Assembly: GCA_003134655.1 (NCBI GenBank) | Contig: PLBY01000114.1 | Location: forward strand, 1 to 64,000 | Source of the DNA: Acidobacteriaceae bacterium | Lineage (GTDB): Bacteria > Acidobacteriota > Terriglobia > Terriglobales > Acidobacteriaceae | Direction: 5' to 3' | Length of the DNA stretch: 64,000 bases | Shown: piece after piece, positions 3,420 to 8,063 of the stretch | Numbering within the stretch: the first letter of the stretch is position 1 | Layout: each line of letters starts with the position of its first letter | Program-made: the position numbers and the translations under genes | The notes under the pieces: model-generated | Told to the model about the DNA's origin: nothing | Seen by the model: only the letters and a program-made list of their open reading frames with translations | Databases searched by the model: none

Positions 3420-5228
3420 ATGGGGCACCCTAGAAAGAACACGGGCGAAGTCGAAATCGATTTGGGACGCTACGAACTGCGACGGTTCGGACAGCGGATC
3501 AAGATCGAGAAGAAGCCCATGGAACTGCTGATCTTCCTGCTGGGGCGGCGCGAGCAGATGGTGTCTCGTGAAGACATCGTCAAGAGACTCTGGCGCTCGG
3601 ATCTGTTTATCGACACGGAGAAGAACGTCAACAACGTGGTGCGAAAGCTTCGCACGGCCCTGGGTGACAGCGCCGACAAGCCACGCTTTCTGGAAACGGT
3701 GGTCGGAAAGGGATACCGGTTCGTCGGCCCGGTTCGCGTGATCGATGCGCAATATCCGGTTTCTGACGCTCGGCGAACTCCGGAACTCATCGACCAGAGG
3801 ACCGACGCGAGCGATTGGGGCAACCGTTCGTCGATCGCAGTCCTGCCGCCGTTGCTGCTGGAGAAGGCTACCGACGACCAGGGCCTGTGTCTCGGTTTTG
3901 CGGATGCCCTGGTCTCCCGTCTCGGAAATCTGCCGGGCGTAGACGTGTTGCCCACTTCCGCGGTTCTGAACCTACCAATGGAAACAAATCCTTCGCAAGT
4001 CGCGTCTCGGCTGGGCGTCCGATTTGTGGTCCACGGAGCACTGCAGATGTCGAAGGGGCAGTGGCGCCTCTCGCTGGAGATGCTTGACGCCCAGCTGCAG
4101 CGCTCCTGCTTCGCGAAGAGGTGCGACCTCGATCTGAGTCGCCTGGTGAGCGTGGAGAGCGACGTCGCGAAGGGCATCAGCCGCGCGTTAAACCGACCCA
4201 CGGTCACGGCGGAGGCCGAGCAGCGCCCGCGCTACAGCCGGGACCCGATGGCCTATGCGGAATTCATGCGGGGCTATCGCATCGCTGCGAGCGGCAATGC
4301 TTCCAGGATGGACGAAGCTAGCCATCATCTCAGCAATGCGCTGACTCGCGATCCCGCGTTTGCCCTTGCTCATGCGACTCTCTCGTTCGCATGCACAACG
4401 CGCCATTTTGAATTCGACCCCGCCAGCGTGTGGCTGGAGAAAGCGGAGTTCCACTGCCGGCGGGCACTCGAGATTGACGCGAATCTTCCCGAAGGGCACG
4501 TGGCCCGCGCTTTTCTGCTGTGGGGACCATCGAAAAACTTTCAACATCTGGAGGCCATTGCTGATCTCAAGCGCGCTCTCGCGCTGCAGAAGAACCTGCC
4601 TCATGCTTACAACCGTCTGGGCTCGATCCTGGCGCATGTCGGACTGCTCGATCATGCTCGCGAGATGTTTGAAAGGGGACGGCCTTTTCAACCTAACAAG
4701 GCGGTGAACCCGAGCGTCGTCCAAGTTTATGTTTGGGGCCAGGAATACGACCTGGCGCGCCGGCACATTCAGATCTGGCGCACAGAGAGTCCCGGCAACA
4801 AGTACGCCCTATATTTTGCTTCGTACCCTGCGATGATGACTGGGGATTGGAAAGAGGCGACCCGACTTACGGACGAGGCGGTGCAACTCGTGCCGAACGA
4901 CCCGCTCATCATCAGCCGACAAGGTCTGCTGCACGCTTTGATGGGGAATCGGGATGCGGCCATCGAGTGTGTTACTCATGCCTGTTCGAGTCCTAGGTCT
5001 TTCGGCCACGCGCATCACACGTATTATCAGATCGCCTGCACACTCGCTCTGACCGGAAGGCGCGACACTGCCTTCGAATGGCTGGAGCGCAGCGTCAGTA
5101 CCGGCTTCGCCTGCTGGCCTTACTTTCTGAAAGATCCCTGCCTCGCGAGTCTGCGCAGTCTTCCCGAGTTCGAACTTCTGATCAGTGCGTTGCAGGCCAA
5201 ATACCCGGACCACCTGGGTCTGCTCTAG
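3420..5228 (+). CDS. OmpR-type winged-helix regulator with TPR repeats
   Basis: This protein of about 602 aa has an N-terminal OmpR/CadC-like winged-helix DNA-binding domain (residues ~10-95). Its recognition-helix region reads NNVVRKLRTALGD, and the domain ends with VVGKGYRFVG, the usual wing signature. A FlgO/TolB-like domain (SIAVLPPLLLE, ~140-265) follows, then TPR-type helices to the C-terminus. No transmembrane segment is evident, so it is probably cytoplasmic, unlike CadC. ATG 3420 is preferred because of GGGG just upstream; a GTG at 3393 in the same frame is possible. It is divergent from the cupin-methyltransferase pair and is a candidate regulator of it. Its TAG stop shares a CTAG with the stop of the convergent AhpD-like gene. 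Confidence 0.85.
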   Translation: MGHPRKNTGEVEIDLGRYELRRFGQRIKIEKKPMELLIFLLGRREQMVSREDIVKRLWRSDLFIDTEKNVNNVVRKLRTALGDSADKPRFLETVVGKGYRFVGPVRVIDAQYPVSDARRTPELIDQRTDASDWGNRSSIAVLPPLLLEKATDDQGLCLGFADALVSRLGNLPGVDVLPTSAVLNLPMETNPSQVASRLGVRFVVHGALQMSKGQWRLSLEMLDAQLQRSCFAKRCDLDLSRLVSVESDVAKGISRALNRPTVTAEAEQRPRYSRDPMAYAEFMRGYRIAASGNASRMDEASHHLSNALTRDPAFALAHATLSFACTTRHFEFDPASVWLEKAEFHCRRALEIDANLPEGHVARAFLLWGPSKNFQHLEAIADLKRALALQKNLPHAYNRLGSILAHVGLLDHAREMFERGRPFQPNKAVNPSVVQVYVWGQEYDLARRHIQIWRTESPGNKYALYFASYPAMMTGDWKEATRLTDEAVQLVPNDPLIISRQGLLHALMGNRDAAIECVTHACSSPRSFGHAHHTYYQIACTLALTGRRDTAFEWLERSVSTGFACWPYFLKDPCLASLRSLPEFELLISALQAKYPDHLGLL

Positions 5229-5809
5229 TCGGCTGCTTGCACTGGCAGGGCGCACACGGCGCCCTCAGTAAAATTCTCCGCTTCGACGCCGAAGGCGTGA
5301 TCGAAGCGTGCGCGGTAGTTCTCCCACGCGATTGCGGACGTCAGTTCCACGAGTTCTGCTTCGCTGAACCGTTCCCGCAACTTGGCAAACAGCGCGTCGG
5401 AGACTTCCACCGGAGTCCGAGTCATTCCGTCGGCGTATTCGAGGACGAGCCTTTCCAGTTCAGAGAAATTGAAATCCGTGAGGTAGTTGTTGAGATTCGC
5501 GATCTGCTCCGTCGTGATGCCGCTCGCTCTGCCCACGGCAGAGCCGATGTCAATTCAAAACGGGCATCCGACGAGCGTGGCCACGCGCAGTTCGGCGAGT
5601 CCTTTGAGCTTGGGATCGATGAGCTTGCTGCTGGCCTGCGATTGCTCCATCACGACGTATCCCCAAAAGATTTTGGGATGATGCGCGGTCACCTGGACGG
5701 GCATGATGACGCGGCCAAGCCTGCGCTGCGTAAGAGAGTAGACGATCCCGACAAACAACCGGCGGAGCAGGCCGCCCTGGTTGCGGGGAGCGCCGGTAAT
5801 GCGCGCCAT
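5225..5809 (-). CDS. AhpD/carboxymuconolactone decarboxylase-like protein, probable selenoprotein (CxxU)
   Basis: Read through one in-frame TGA (5557-5555), this is a 194-aa AhpD-like protein. Residues 81-90 read GCPFUIDIGS; relatives carry Cys-x-x-Cys there, so TGA replaces exactly the second redox cysteine (C82, U85). The frame stays open for another 109 codons and contains typical family sequence such as MTRTPVEV and ENYRARFDHAFG. A perfect 8-bp hairpin begins 10 bases after the TGA. The start is firm: AGGAGGT lies five bases before the ATG. The permease gene ends 10 bp upstream, so the two are probably co-transcribed. AhpD-type proteins act in peroxide and thiol redox chemistry; the substrate is unknown. 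Alternatives are a nonsense mutation or a sequencing error. Standard gene calling would split it into 84- and 103-aa fragments. Confidence 0.75.
5526..5544 (-). promoter_or_regulatory. SECIS-like hairpin downstream of the in-frame TGA
   Basis: On the minus strand GCTCTGCC (5544-5537) pairs perfectly with GGCAGAGC (5533-5526) around a three-base loop GTG. The loop's first G lies 18 nucleotides after the TGA. Bacterial SECIS elements lie directly downstream of the UGA inside the coding region, with an apical-loop G roughly 16-37 nucleotides away. This hairpin fits that description. Its sequence is also coding (GSAVGRA), as expected. Confidence 0.6.
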
Positions 5810-5819
5810 GGGGACCTCC

Positions 5820-8063
5820 TTACGAATTTAGATCGGTGCGGGGGGGAGCCTGCATCTCGTCTTGCAACTTTTGCAGCAGCTGCGCGCGTTGTTCGGTGCT
5901 CAACTCGCGCTGCAGTTCCTCCAAGGCCAGGGCCACGATGTGATAGTGGTGAGCGCCGGCGAACTTGGGATCGGCCGTGATGTTGAGCCAGAGCTGGTGC
6001 ATGAGTTCGACATCCTGCGGGCGCATGCGCGGAGCATGGGGTCCGAGAGCAAATTCGCGAATGGTCCCGTCCGGAGCGCACACTTCCAGATTCAGCCGGG
6101 GACGCGGCTCGGGCAGGCGTTCCCAGGCGTCGCCCGTGAGCTTGGCCTGCTCATCGGCGGTGAGCTTGTTGGAGAGCCCGCAGACCACGCGACTGGACTC
6201 GAGCCGCTGCGCCGTCACCATGATGGCTTCGAAGACGTCCGTCGCGGGCACCACGAGCAGAGAGATGGGCTTCCCTTCCTTTTCGGCCACAGCCACGGCC
6301 GCCGTGAAAAGCTCCTGCTCGTAGTGGTCGAATACCTGGCTCGCTTCAAACACCGAACTCCCGCTGAAACTATGCTCCCGATGGTACAAGCGGGCGCTCA
6401 TCACCACCACGTCCTGCTTGATGGTGTTGGTATGGCTGAGGATGTGCCGCAAGTAATAGAGATTCCGTGGGTCGCGGACCGCAACCAATACATTGCCGGG
6501 ACGGACACCCATGGCGCCGCTGCCCAGCTCCTGATTGCCGTAAACCCGGAACTGGTCGAGTTGCTCGGGCTTGCCGTGGCGCTCCTTGGTGACATGGTGC
6601 TCGGAGAGCGTAAAGATCGTGAAGAATACCACGCTGAAGACAATGCCAGCGATCGTAGCCTCATACTTGGTGAACAGATTCACAATTGCGGTCATGAAGA
6701 GCACAGCAGAAATGATAATGAGGCCAATGGGAATTTCAGTCTTTCCGATGTGCAGATTCCCGGGCACTTTCCACGCCCGGTTCCCCGGCTCCGTGAAACG
6801 CAACACGAGCACGGCCAGGGACTTCATGGTGAAGCTCCAGATCACTCCGAAGGCGTACAGCGCGGCCAACTGGTAGACGTCGCCCCGGCTCAGCACAATG
6901 GTGAGCAACTGCATGCCTACGATCAGGTTGATGATGCGGTAGCTGGTGCCGTAGCGGTGGTGGGGCTTCTGAAACCAGTCGGTCAGCACTCCATCTTCGG
7001 CCACGCGGTTCAGGACACCATTCGCACCCACGATGGAAGTGTTCTGCGCGCCCGCGAGTATCAGTACGCCCACCAGTACGACGAAGCCGTGGAACAAGAT
7101 CTTCAGGCTAGTCGGCCCCACCAGATACACGGCGATGCCGCCGATGAGGTCCGCGAAGTACTGCGGGCGGACGCCGTCCGGGATGATCATCACTGCAAAG
7201 AACGACACCAGCGAAGTGAACAGCAGGCTGTAGACAAAGATCACCAGCCCGGTCTTCTCCAGGTTCTTCAGCTTGGGGTGTTCGATTTCGCGGTTGACCT
7301 GGGCCAGCGTTTCTTCGCCGCTCATGGCCAGAACGGAGTGCCCGAAGCCGACGAACAGGATGATCCACGTGATGTGGCCGAACCAGGTTGGCAGCCAGCC
7401 CAGAGACTCCTTGTTGAGCGGAATCACGCCCGCGTGCAGTGGGTTCGGGGGCAACTGCACCGGAGCCCGCAGAACCGTGATCGTGCACCAGATGATCAAA
7501 ATCACCACCATCACCGTGGTGATGGCCATGATCTGCAAGGCCTTCTGGCTGGATTCGTGGATGCCCTGCGTGTTCTTCCACCAGAAGTAGCCGACGATGA
7601 TGACGGCCACTCCGGCGGCGAAATGGTCGTCGGAAAAATTGAGCGGGCGGTGGAGGACTACGCCGATGTCCTTGATGAACCCCGCCAGGTATTGCCCTGC
7701 AGAAACCGCGCTGATGGGACCGGTGAGGACATAGTCGAACAGCAGCGCCGACACGGAGAACTTGGCGAGCGTTCCGCCCATCGCCTCTTTGACGACGCGG
7801 TAGACGCCGCCGCGCACGAACATGCTGCTCGACTCGATATAGAGCGCGCGCACCGCGTAGCTGAACAGCATGACCGCGAGGATGAACCAGGGCGCGCTCT
7901 TGCCGATGACTTTCTCGGCATCGCCGCCGGCGTAGTAGGCGGACGAGGCCAGATCCGACAGAACGATGGCGGAGGCCCGCCAGAACGAAATGAAGGTCAG
8001 CATCACCGTTGTGGCGACGAAGACCTTTACTGCCGGTTTTGTACCCTCAGGGGATGTAGCCAT
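5820..8063 (-). CDS. APC-superfamily amino-acid permease with large cytoplasmic C-terminal domain
   Basis: This 747-aa integral membrane protein has an APC-type permease core with about 12 hydrophobic segments over residues ~15-500. An example is the segment around FISFWRASAIVLSDLASSAYY near the N-terminus. It is followed by a soluble C-terminal region of ~230 residues. Part of that region (VLVAVRDPRNLYYLRHIL to LLVVPATDVFEAIMV) resembles a universal-stress-protein fold. It probably transports amino acids or similar cations by proton symport; the substrate is not readable. The candidate selenoprotein gene follows 10 bp downstream. The upstream gap to the DUF885 gene holds an inverted-repeat cluster. 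The start at 8063 has no strong ribosome-binding site. Confidence 0.9.
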   Translation of the reverse strand: MATSPEGTKPAVKVFVATTVMLTFISFWRASAIVLSDLASSAYYAGGDAEKVIGKSAPWFILAVMLFSYAVRALYIESSSMFVRGGVYRVVKEAMGGTLAKFSVSALLFDYVLTGPISAVSAGQYLAGFIKDIGVVLHRPLNFSDDHFAAGVAVIIVGYFWWKNTQGIHESSQKALQIMAITTVMVVILIIWCTITVLRAPVQLPPNPLHAGVIPLNKESLGWLPTWFGHITWIILFVGFGHSVLAMSGEETLAQVNREIEHPKLKNLEKTGLVIFVYSLLFTSLVSFFAVMIIPDGVRPQYFADLIGGIAVYLVGPTSLKILFHGFVVLVGVLILAGAQNTSIVGANGVLNRVAEDGVLTDWFQKPHHRYGTSYRIINLIVGMQLLTIVLSRGDVYQLAALYAFGVIWSFTMKSLAVLVLRFTEPGNRAWKVPGNLHIGKTEIPIGLIIISAVLFMTAIVNLFTKYEATIAGIVFSVVFFTIFTLSEHHVTKERHGKPEQLDQFRVYGNQELGSGAMGVRPGNVLVAVRDPRNLYYLRHILSHTNTIKQDVVVMSARLYHREHSFSGSSVFEASQVFDHYEQELFTAAVAVAEKEGKPISLLVVPATDVFEAIMVTAQRLESSRVVCGLSNKLTADEQAKLTGDAWERLPEPRPRLNLEVCAPDGTIREFALGPHAPRMRPQDVELMHQLWLNITADPKFAGAHHYHIVALALEELQRELSTEQRAQLLQKLQDEMQAPPRTDLNS

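What the first reader, a model, noticed from the sequence alone, without database searches (positions are those of the whole stretch)
5225..5809. Probable selenoprotein hidden by an in-frame TGA: AhpD-like protein with a CxxU redox motif
Seen: the minus-strand frame from 5809 to 5225 is open except for one TGA (5557-5555). It falls at the second position of a CPF-C type motif (GCPF-TGA-IDIGS), and family-like sequence continues on both sides without a frame change. Known: AhpD-like families use a redox CxxC, and selenocysteine replaces redox cysteines at TGA codons. Inference: TGA codes for Sec. A normal gene caller would report two unrelated fragments of 84 and 103 aa and hide the redox enzyme.
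Basis: partly seen in the sequence, partly recalled or inferred. Interest (0 to 1): 0.88.

Follow-up and report, generated by a model that had tools for sequence, protein, structure and literature searches.

The report
Selenoprotein gene split by apparent stop
An apparent stop codon splits what is very probably one gene for a small redox-type protein that carries selenium in its active site; it looks like a genuine new member of a selenoprotein group already on record.

Summary
The minus-strand frame 5809-5225 has one internal stop, UGA at 5557-5555 (residue 85 of 194, last position of C-P-F-U). 39 other distinct aligned homologues, from several phyla, keep UGA at this codon; 43 of the other 45 have Cys. 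The seven nearest all have UGA. Codon changes point to selection on both sides. A SECIS-type hairpin follows in nearly all UGA loci and in none of 43 Cys loci. The genome holds selA, selB, tRNA-Sec(UCA) and a UGA-containing selD. Of 32 genomes in the phylum sample with a UGA-containing match, 31 have selB. The read-through protein is modelled with confidence and resembles AhpD-like structures. CxxU selenoproteins of the CMD/AhpD type have been in print since 2005, so this is a new member of a known kind. One twist: its clade lacks the Glu and His of the AhpD proton relay. Function (thiol/selenol redox) is inferred; substrate unknown; nothing was tested at the bench.

The parts
5225..5809 (-). 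CDS of the Sec-containing CMD/AhpD-like protein, 194 aa, TGA at codon 85, stop TAG 5227-5225
5555..5557 (-). in-frame UGA read as selenocysteine (residue 85)
   Evidence: TGA or Cys at this codon in 83 of 85 distinct aligned loci
5564..5566 (-). codon of Cys82, partner of Sec85 in C-P-F-U
   Evidence: Cys at this place in 40 of 40 distinct TGA loci; invariant in the 22 rows of alignment A1
5526..5544 (-). bacterial SECIS-type hairpin, GCUCUGCC-GUG-GGCAGAGC, its first base 11 nt after the last base of the UGA
5814..5821 (-). Shine-Dalgarno-like AAGGAGGT before ATG 5809
   Evidence: sequence
5820..8063 (-). amino acid permease (PF13520) directly upstream on the same strand; possibly co-transcribed (inference). 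Neighbour kept in L026, not found in the other 20 loci compared

Best explanation
The locus is a single gene for a selenoprotein of the CMD/AhpD-like superfamily. SelB with Sec-tRNA(UCA) recognises the hairpin just after the UGA and inserts selenocysteine at residue 85 (strongly supported by comparison, not by experiment). Cys82 and Sec85 lie at the start of a helix in the model and most likely cycle between a reduced thiol/selenolate and a selenenylsulfide, reducing a small peroxide, disulfide or similar electrophile at the expense of a cellular thiol reductant (inferred from the superfamily). Because the Glu and His of the AhpD proton relay are missing, the low intrinsic pKa of selenocysteine (recalled) probably does their job here (inferred). 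The confidence given is for the first two sentences; for a thiol/selenol peroxide or disulfide reductase I would say about 0.6.
For: UGA at the same codon in 40 of 85 distinct aligned loci, against 43 with Cys and 2 with another residue. The clade of 8 that holds the window is all UGA, across Acidobacteriota and Planctomycetota. More silent than residue-changing codon differences on both sides of the UGA for L026 (28 v 14 of 84 upstream, 45 v 17 of 110 downstream) and L027 (29 v 16, 38 v 23). Hairpin: 134 of 147 cells paired in the 21 UGA loci with Gly, Asn or Val at +4, and 105 of 112 in the 16 with His (register 2 nt further on); slid by 1-3 nt they reach at most 82 of 147 and 63 of 112; 0 of 43 Cys loci have 6 or more of 7 pairs in either register. 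selB, selA and selD over their cut-offs, selD with its own UGA; tRNA-Sec with anticodon TCA. 31 of 32 genomes with a TGA-containing match have selB, against 256 of 396 overall. Model with mean pLDDT 92.9, best PDB matches AhpD-like proteins.
Against: No experiment. Two-sided changes are not decisive in the first register: 5 of 7 pairs at register 0 but up to 4 of 7 when slid (second register 6 of 7 v at most 3 of 7). The hairpin of the window alone is only modestly stronger than protein-preserving recodings (75 of 2000 as stable; L026 244, L029 292, L106 231, L031 193 of 2000). UGA loci that do not fit their register: L036, L076, L085; of the three with Arg at +4 one fits. One genome with a TGA-containing match, G110, has no selB. 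The genome is in 164 contigs with 5.23% contamination, and the selenium genes lie on other contigs than the window. No shared neighbour names a partner or substrate. The relay His is missing also in two close Cys homologues (L034, L080, Asn), so Sec is not strictly needed to do without it.
Confidence: 0.95

Rival explanations
1. The UGA is a real stop: the gene is a pseudogene or a truncated 84-aa protein.
For: Table 11 reads it so; UGA does seem to end other frames here (6 of 27 non-overlapping frames of 300 aa or more in the window end in TGA, a mechanical pick that includes at least one frame antisense to a gene); no expression data.
Against: Codon changes downstream of the UGA are of the same kind as upstream; same UGA in several phyla; hairpin in the UGA loci and not in the Cys loci.
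Confidence: 0.02
2. Sequencing or assembly error of a TGC or TGT Cys codon.
For: 43 of 85 distinct aligned loci have Cys here.
Against: The two nearest named relatives, L026 and L027, have the same TGA in separate records, as do 37 further distinct loci.
Confidence: 0.005
3. UGA is read as another amino acid (Trp, as in code 4, or by suppression).
For: The frame is open under such a code.
Against: The other 45 distinct loci have Cys in 43, Leu and Ala in one each, never Trp; Sec machinery and a Sec-type hairpin exist; long frames in the window end in TGA too.
Confidence: 0.01
4. A selenoprotein, but with a function other than peroxide or disulfide reduction, for example reductive dehalogenation as the name of its structural neighbour Bmp8 suggests.
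For: Top Foldseek row is debrominase Bmp8 (6ohi_A, E 1.2e-06), which in the alignment also lacks His at +4 (CMYCKSHF, His at +3).
Against: Only 17% identity, with near-equal E-values for PA0269; the same fold holds many proteins named peroxidase-related; no dehalogenation neighbour seen among the proteins scanned.
Confidence: 0.15

Closest known systems
CMD domain-containing / AhpD-like selenoproteins with CxxU (Sargasso Sea set, PMC1088965; 'AhpD-like 2', pfam02627, PMC2398784; CMD-like protein in the tables of PMC9312934 and PMC13188914)
   Same: CMD domain, CxxU motif, SECIS-like hairpin downstream of the UGA (passages seen)
   Different: I did not align the published sequences, so whether the window's clade is one of those subgroups is not tested. 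Acidobacteria are not mentioned in the text of three of the four papers (0 occurrences); the term was not looked for in PMC1088965.
NCBIfam NF053654 GroundWater_YciW, 'YciW-related (seleno)protein'
   Same: Best NCBIfam match, 133.9 bits, residues 1-178
   Different: Far below its curated cut-off of 310 bits, so a sister group, not a member.
AhpD and AhpD-like peroxidases (PA0269, Atu0492, M. tuberculosis AhpD)
   Same: Fold (2o4d, rmsd 1.6 A over 137 columns); place of the redox pair
   Different: Sec for the second Cys; relay Glu (Gly70 here) and His (Gly89 here) missing. M. tuberculosis AhpD itself is only a weak structural match (1gu9, E 0.73).
Debrominase Bmp8 (6ohi, 6ohj)
   Same: Fold and place of the redox motif
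   Different: Cys, not Sec; 17% identity.

Membership tests
Bacterial selenoprotein | in-frame UGA aligned to Cys of homologues | tested here: met
   40 TGA and 43 Cys among 85 distinct aligned loci
Bacterial selenoprotein | hairpin just downstream with G in the apical loop (feature as described) | tested here: met
   loop GUG here; by comparison only
Bacterial selenoprotein | selA, selB, selC, selD in the genome | tested here: met
Bacterial selenoprotein | selenium in the purified protein | not testable with these tools
   needs 75Se labelling or mass spectrometry
CMD superfamily (PF02627) | score over Pfam's gathering cut-off | tested here: met
   29.9 v 23 bits, read-through only
NF053654 YciW-related (seleno)protein | score over curated cut-off 310 bits | tested here: not met
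   133.9 bits
AhpD-like peroxidase | AhpD-like all-helical fold | tested here: met
   (predicted model)
AhpD-like peroxidase | relay His four residues after the second redox residue | tested here: not met
   Gly89; among 40 TGA loci His 16, Asn 12, Gly 8, Arg 3, Val 1; His called invariant in the family members compared in PMC3141380 (passages)
AhpD-like peroxidase | relay Glu (or His) twelve residues before the first Cys | tested here: not met
   Gly70; role from PMC3141380 (passages)
AhpD-like peroxidase | peroxidase activity | not testable with these tools
   needs the purified protein

The most novel reading that the evidence does not exclude
A Sec-specific branch of the AhpD-like fold in which selenocysteine has taken over the work of the lost Glu/His proton relay, giving an enzyme with a chemistry (for instance selenol-based reduction of a halogenated or other electrophilic soil metabolite) not known for AhpD.
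Probability: 0.15. Interest if true: 0.55.

Novelty: new member of a known kind. Interest (0 to 1): 0.3.

Why it matters
Ordinary gene calling would split a conserved redox gene in Acidobacteriota and Planctomycetota. The finding adds a clade in which UGA is fixed (8 of 8 rows) to a superfamily in which the Sec label needs 9 changes on the tree, at least 5 of them forced by well-supported branches. The missing relay residues make a clean test of what Sec buys an AhpD-type active site.

Tried and rejected
Conserved partner gene: the permease next door was found in 1 of 21 loci compared (L026); L027 has the DUF885 gene there (flanks differ in length). Ten chosen ORFs from the flanks of seven other loci (L028, L031, L032, L033, L036, L075, L076) show no common Pfam family; five of the ten match no Pfam model at E 1e-5, and some may be chance frames. 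Rfam at gathering thresholds finds nothing in the window and ARAGORN no tRNA gene. A second tRNA-Sec candidate (L009/L103, 53.8 bits, also over the gathering score) is not called a tRNA by ARAGORN and was left aside. Codon differences for L029 and L030 were not used: the ungapped comparison is out of register upstream, and L030's frame is broken near its start. L097 (TGA reported) could not be aligned even at a loose limit. A paper search for Bmp8/debrominase matched 1,126 papers, mostly by a shared name it seems; the 5 listed are on animal BMP8. The plasmid search gave 114 records, all under 60% identity; their codon was not examined. An earlier count said 13 TGA and 29 Cys of 44; the right count is 12 TGA, 30 Cys, 2 other.

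Full report
What is there. The reverse strand 5809-5225 reads ATG to TAG over 195 codons with a single internal TGA at 5557-5555, codon 85. The ORF list shows 84 and 103 aa. A Shine-Dalgarno-like AAGGAGGT lies just before the ATG and overlaps the last bases of the upstream permease gene. Read through, the protein passes Pfam's cut-off for CMD (29.9 v 23 bits); neither fragment alone matches CMD.

The codon is UGA or Cys in relatives. A scan of one genome per species gave 44 homologous loci; at the aligned codon 12 have TGA, 30 TGC/TGT, 1 CTG, 1 GCG. With loci of the phylum search added, 86 of 90 loci examined aligned across the codon: 41 TGA, 43 Cys, 2 other. With one duplicate removed there are 40 TGA, one of them the window itself, so 85 distinct loci. 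Of the four loci that did not align, three show a C-x-x-TGA motif and one, L097, could not be resolved. The phylum search listed 35 matches with a TGA; 32 were fetched, three (in G208, G092, G137) were not. Cys stands three codons before the TGA in 40 of 40 loci. Two loci, L078 and L085, hold a further stop in the aligned stretch (in L078 it lies near the C-terminal end).

The frame looks selected beyond the UGA. Against L026, 28 codons differ silently and 14 change the residue upstream (of 84), 45 and 17 downstream (of 110); against L027, 29 and 16, then 38 and 23; against L028, 31 and 32, then 41 and 37. An unconstrained frame would show mostly residue-changing differences (textbook expectation, not computed here). 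These are raw counts of codons, not a fitted dN/dS.

A SECIS-type hairpin follows. The 65 nt around the window's UGA fold at -28.2 kcal/mol, z -3.2, 2 of 200 shuffles as good. In the 21 UGA loci with Gly, Asn or Val at +4, a 7-bp stem pairs in 134 of 147 cells; in the 16 with His, a stem two bases further on pairs in 105 of 112. Slid registers reach at most 82 of 147 and 63 of 112. Two-sided changes occur at 5 of 7 and 6 of 7 pairs, but slid registers also show up to 4 of 7 and 3 of 7, so in the first group this measure says little. 19 of 21 and 15 of 16 loci have 6 or more pairs, against 0 of 43 Cys loci in either register. The registers were chosen on these sequences, and related sequences are not independent. 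Exceptions are L036, L076 and L085; of three UGA loci with Arg at +4, one (L066) fits the second register. Synonymous recoding gave hairpins as stable in 75 of 2000 for the window, 23 for L028, 11 for L033, 0 for L115, but 244 for L026, 231 for L106 and 292 for L029; 15 loci were tried. Single sequences are weak evidence; the comparison is strong.

The genome can make Sec. selB 367.8 bits, cut-off 242.25; selA 542.4 bits with its two pieces, cut-off 267.9; selD 361 bits, cut-off 125, with an in-frame TGA in AAGUASK; tRNA-Sec 64.3 bits, gathering score 47, anticodon TCA. Among 396 genomes of the phylum, selB reaches E 1e-60 in 256. Of the 32 genomes with a TGA-containing match 31 are among them; the exception is G110 (counted by eye; Fisher p 1.1e-5). 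For four of the 32 (G023, G208, G092, G137) the place of the TGA was not confirmed. Within the window's own family 6 of 9 genomes with selB and 0 of 35 without have such a match (counted by eye; p 1.2e-5); G023 is one of the six.

What it is. The read-through model (Sec handled as Cys, 22-row alignment) has mean pLDDT 92.9 and pTM 0.89. Its best PDB matches are Bmp8, PA0269, Mlr4105 and Atu0492, and a profile of the 22 rows finds these by sequence too. The best NCBIfam model is NF053654, 'YciW-related (seleno)protein', at 133.9 bits against a cut-off of 310: a sister group. In a tree of 85 rows the window sits in a supported clade of 8, all Sec, from Acidobacteriota and Planctomycetota. The Sec label needs 9 changes, at least 5 forced by starred branches. 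The nearest relatives carry the label Candidatus Sulfotelmatobacter, so the host is inferred to be an acidobacterium of that kin.

Mechanism. PMC3141380 (passages seen) gives the AhpD relay as Glu, Cys, Tyr or His, Cys, His, with both Cys and the last His invariant in the family members compared. Here these places hold Gly70, Cys82, Phe84, Sec85 and Gly89. At +4, of 40 UGA loci 16 have His, 12 Asn, 8 Gly, 3 Arg, 1 Val; of 43 Cys loci 28 have Arg, 13 His, 2 Asn. So His is also missing in most of the Cys loci sampled, largely one clade of 27 with Arg. That Sec's low pKa stands in for the relay is inference, and these Cys homologues count against a strict need. Substrate and reductant are unknown; neighbours do not help.

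What is in print. The Sargasso Sea paper lists CxxU for AhpD-like (27 sequences) and CMD domain-containing (4) selenoproteins (PMC1088965, passages). The GOS paper lists 'AhpD-like 2', pfam02627, CxxU, 70 selenoproteins (PMC2398784, passages). Reviews of 2022 and 2026 list CMD-like CxxU (PMC9312934, PMC13188914, passages). A 2006 survey counts 4 selenoproteins of 3 families in Acidobacteria, not named in the passages seen (PMC1794560). A 2025 method paper counts 3 known selenoprotein genes in one acidobacterium and does not mention AhpD or CMD (PMC12013277, passage). I found no paper that names this clade (searches; open-access library only). So: by comparative evidence a selenoprotein gene, a new member of a known kind.

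Noticed in passing
L100:5096-5878 (-), beside selB at L100:3114-5012 (G000:C139): A Cys-type CMD paralogue (GCHYC) lies next to selB and faces it. In G084, G210 and G265 a CMD-like match also lies next to selB (coordinates), and in G265 (L115) it is itself a UGA version with a strong hairpin: a possible selB-CMD linkage.
   Followed up: partly
L082 and L085 (G226 and G095, one genus): Sister CMD genes in one genus, one with TGC and one with TGA at the redox codon: perhaps a recent Sec/Cys exchange. Both stretches hold a further in-frame stop.
   Followed up: no
L058:3196: A homologue with Ala (GCG) at the Sec/Cys codon, sister to the Sec locus L107 in the tree.
   Followed up: no
L102 (G000:C49, selD): The genome's selD is itself a predicted selenoprotein (UGA in AAGUASK).
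   Followed up: partly
   Followed up: no
G210:C107:24053-24499: CMD-like match beside selB with two in-frame TAG codons; may be a decayed paralogue.
   Followed up: no
L025-type duplicates aside, L030 upstream of its match: L030, nearly identical to L028 from the TGA on, has a broken frame near its start in the ungapped comparison: an indel in the gene or the assembly.
   Followed up: no
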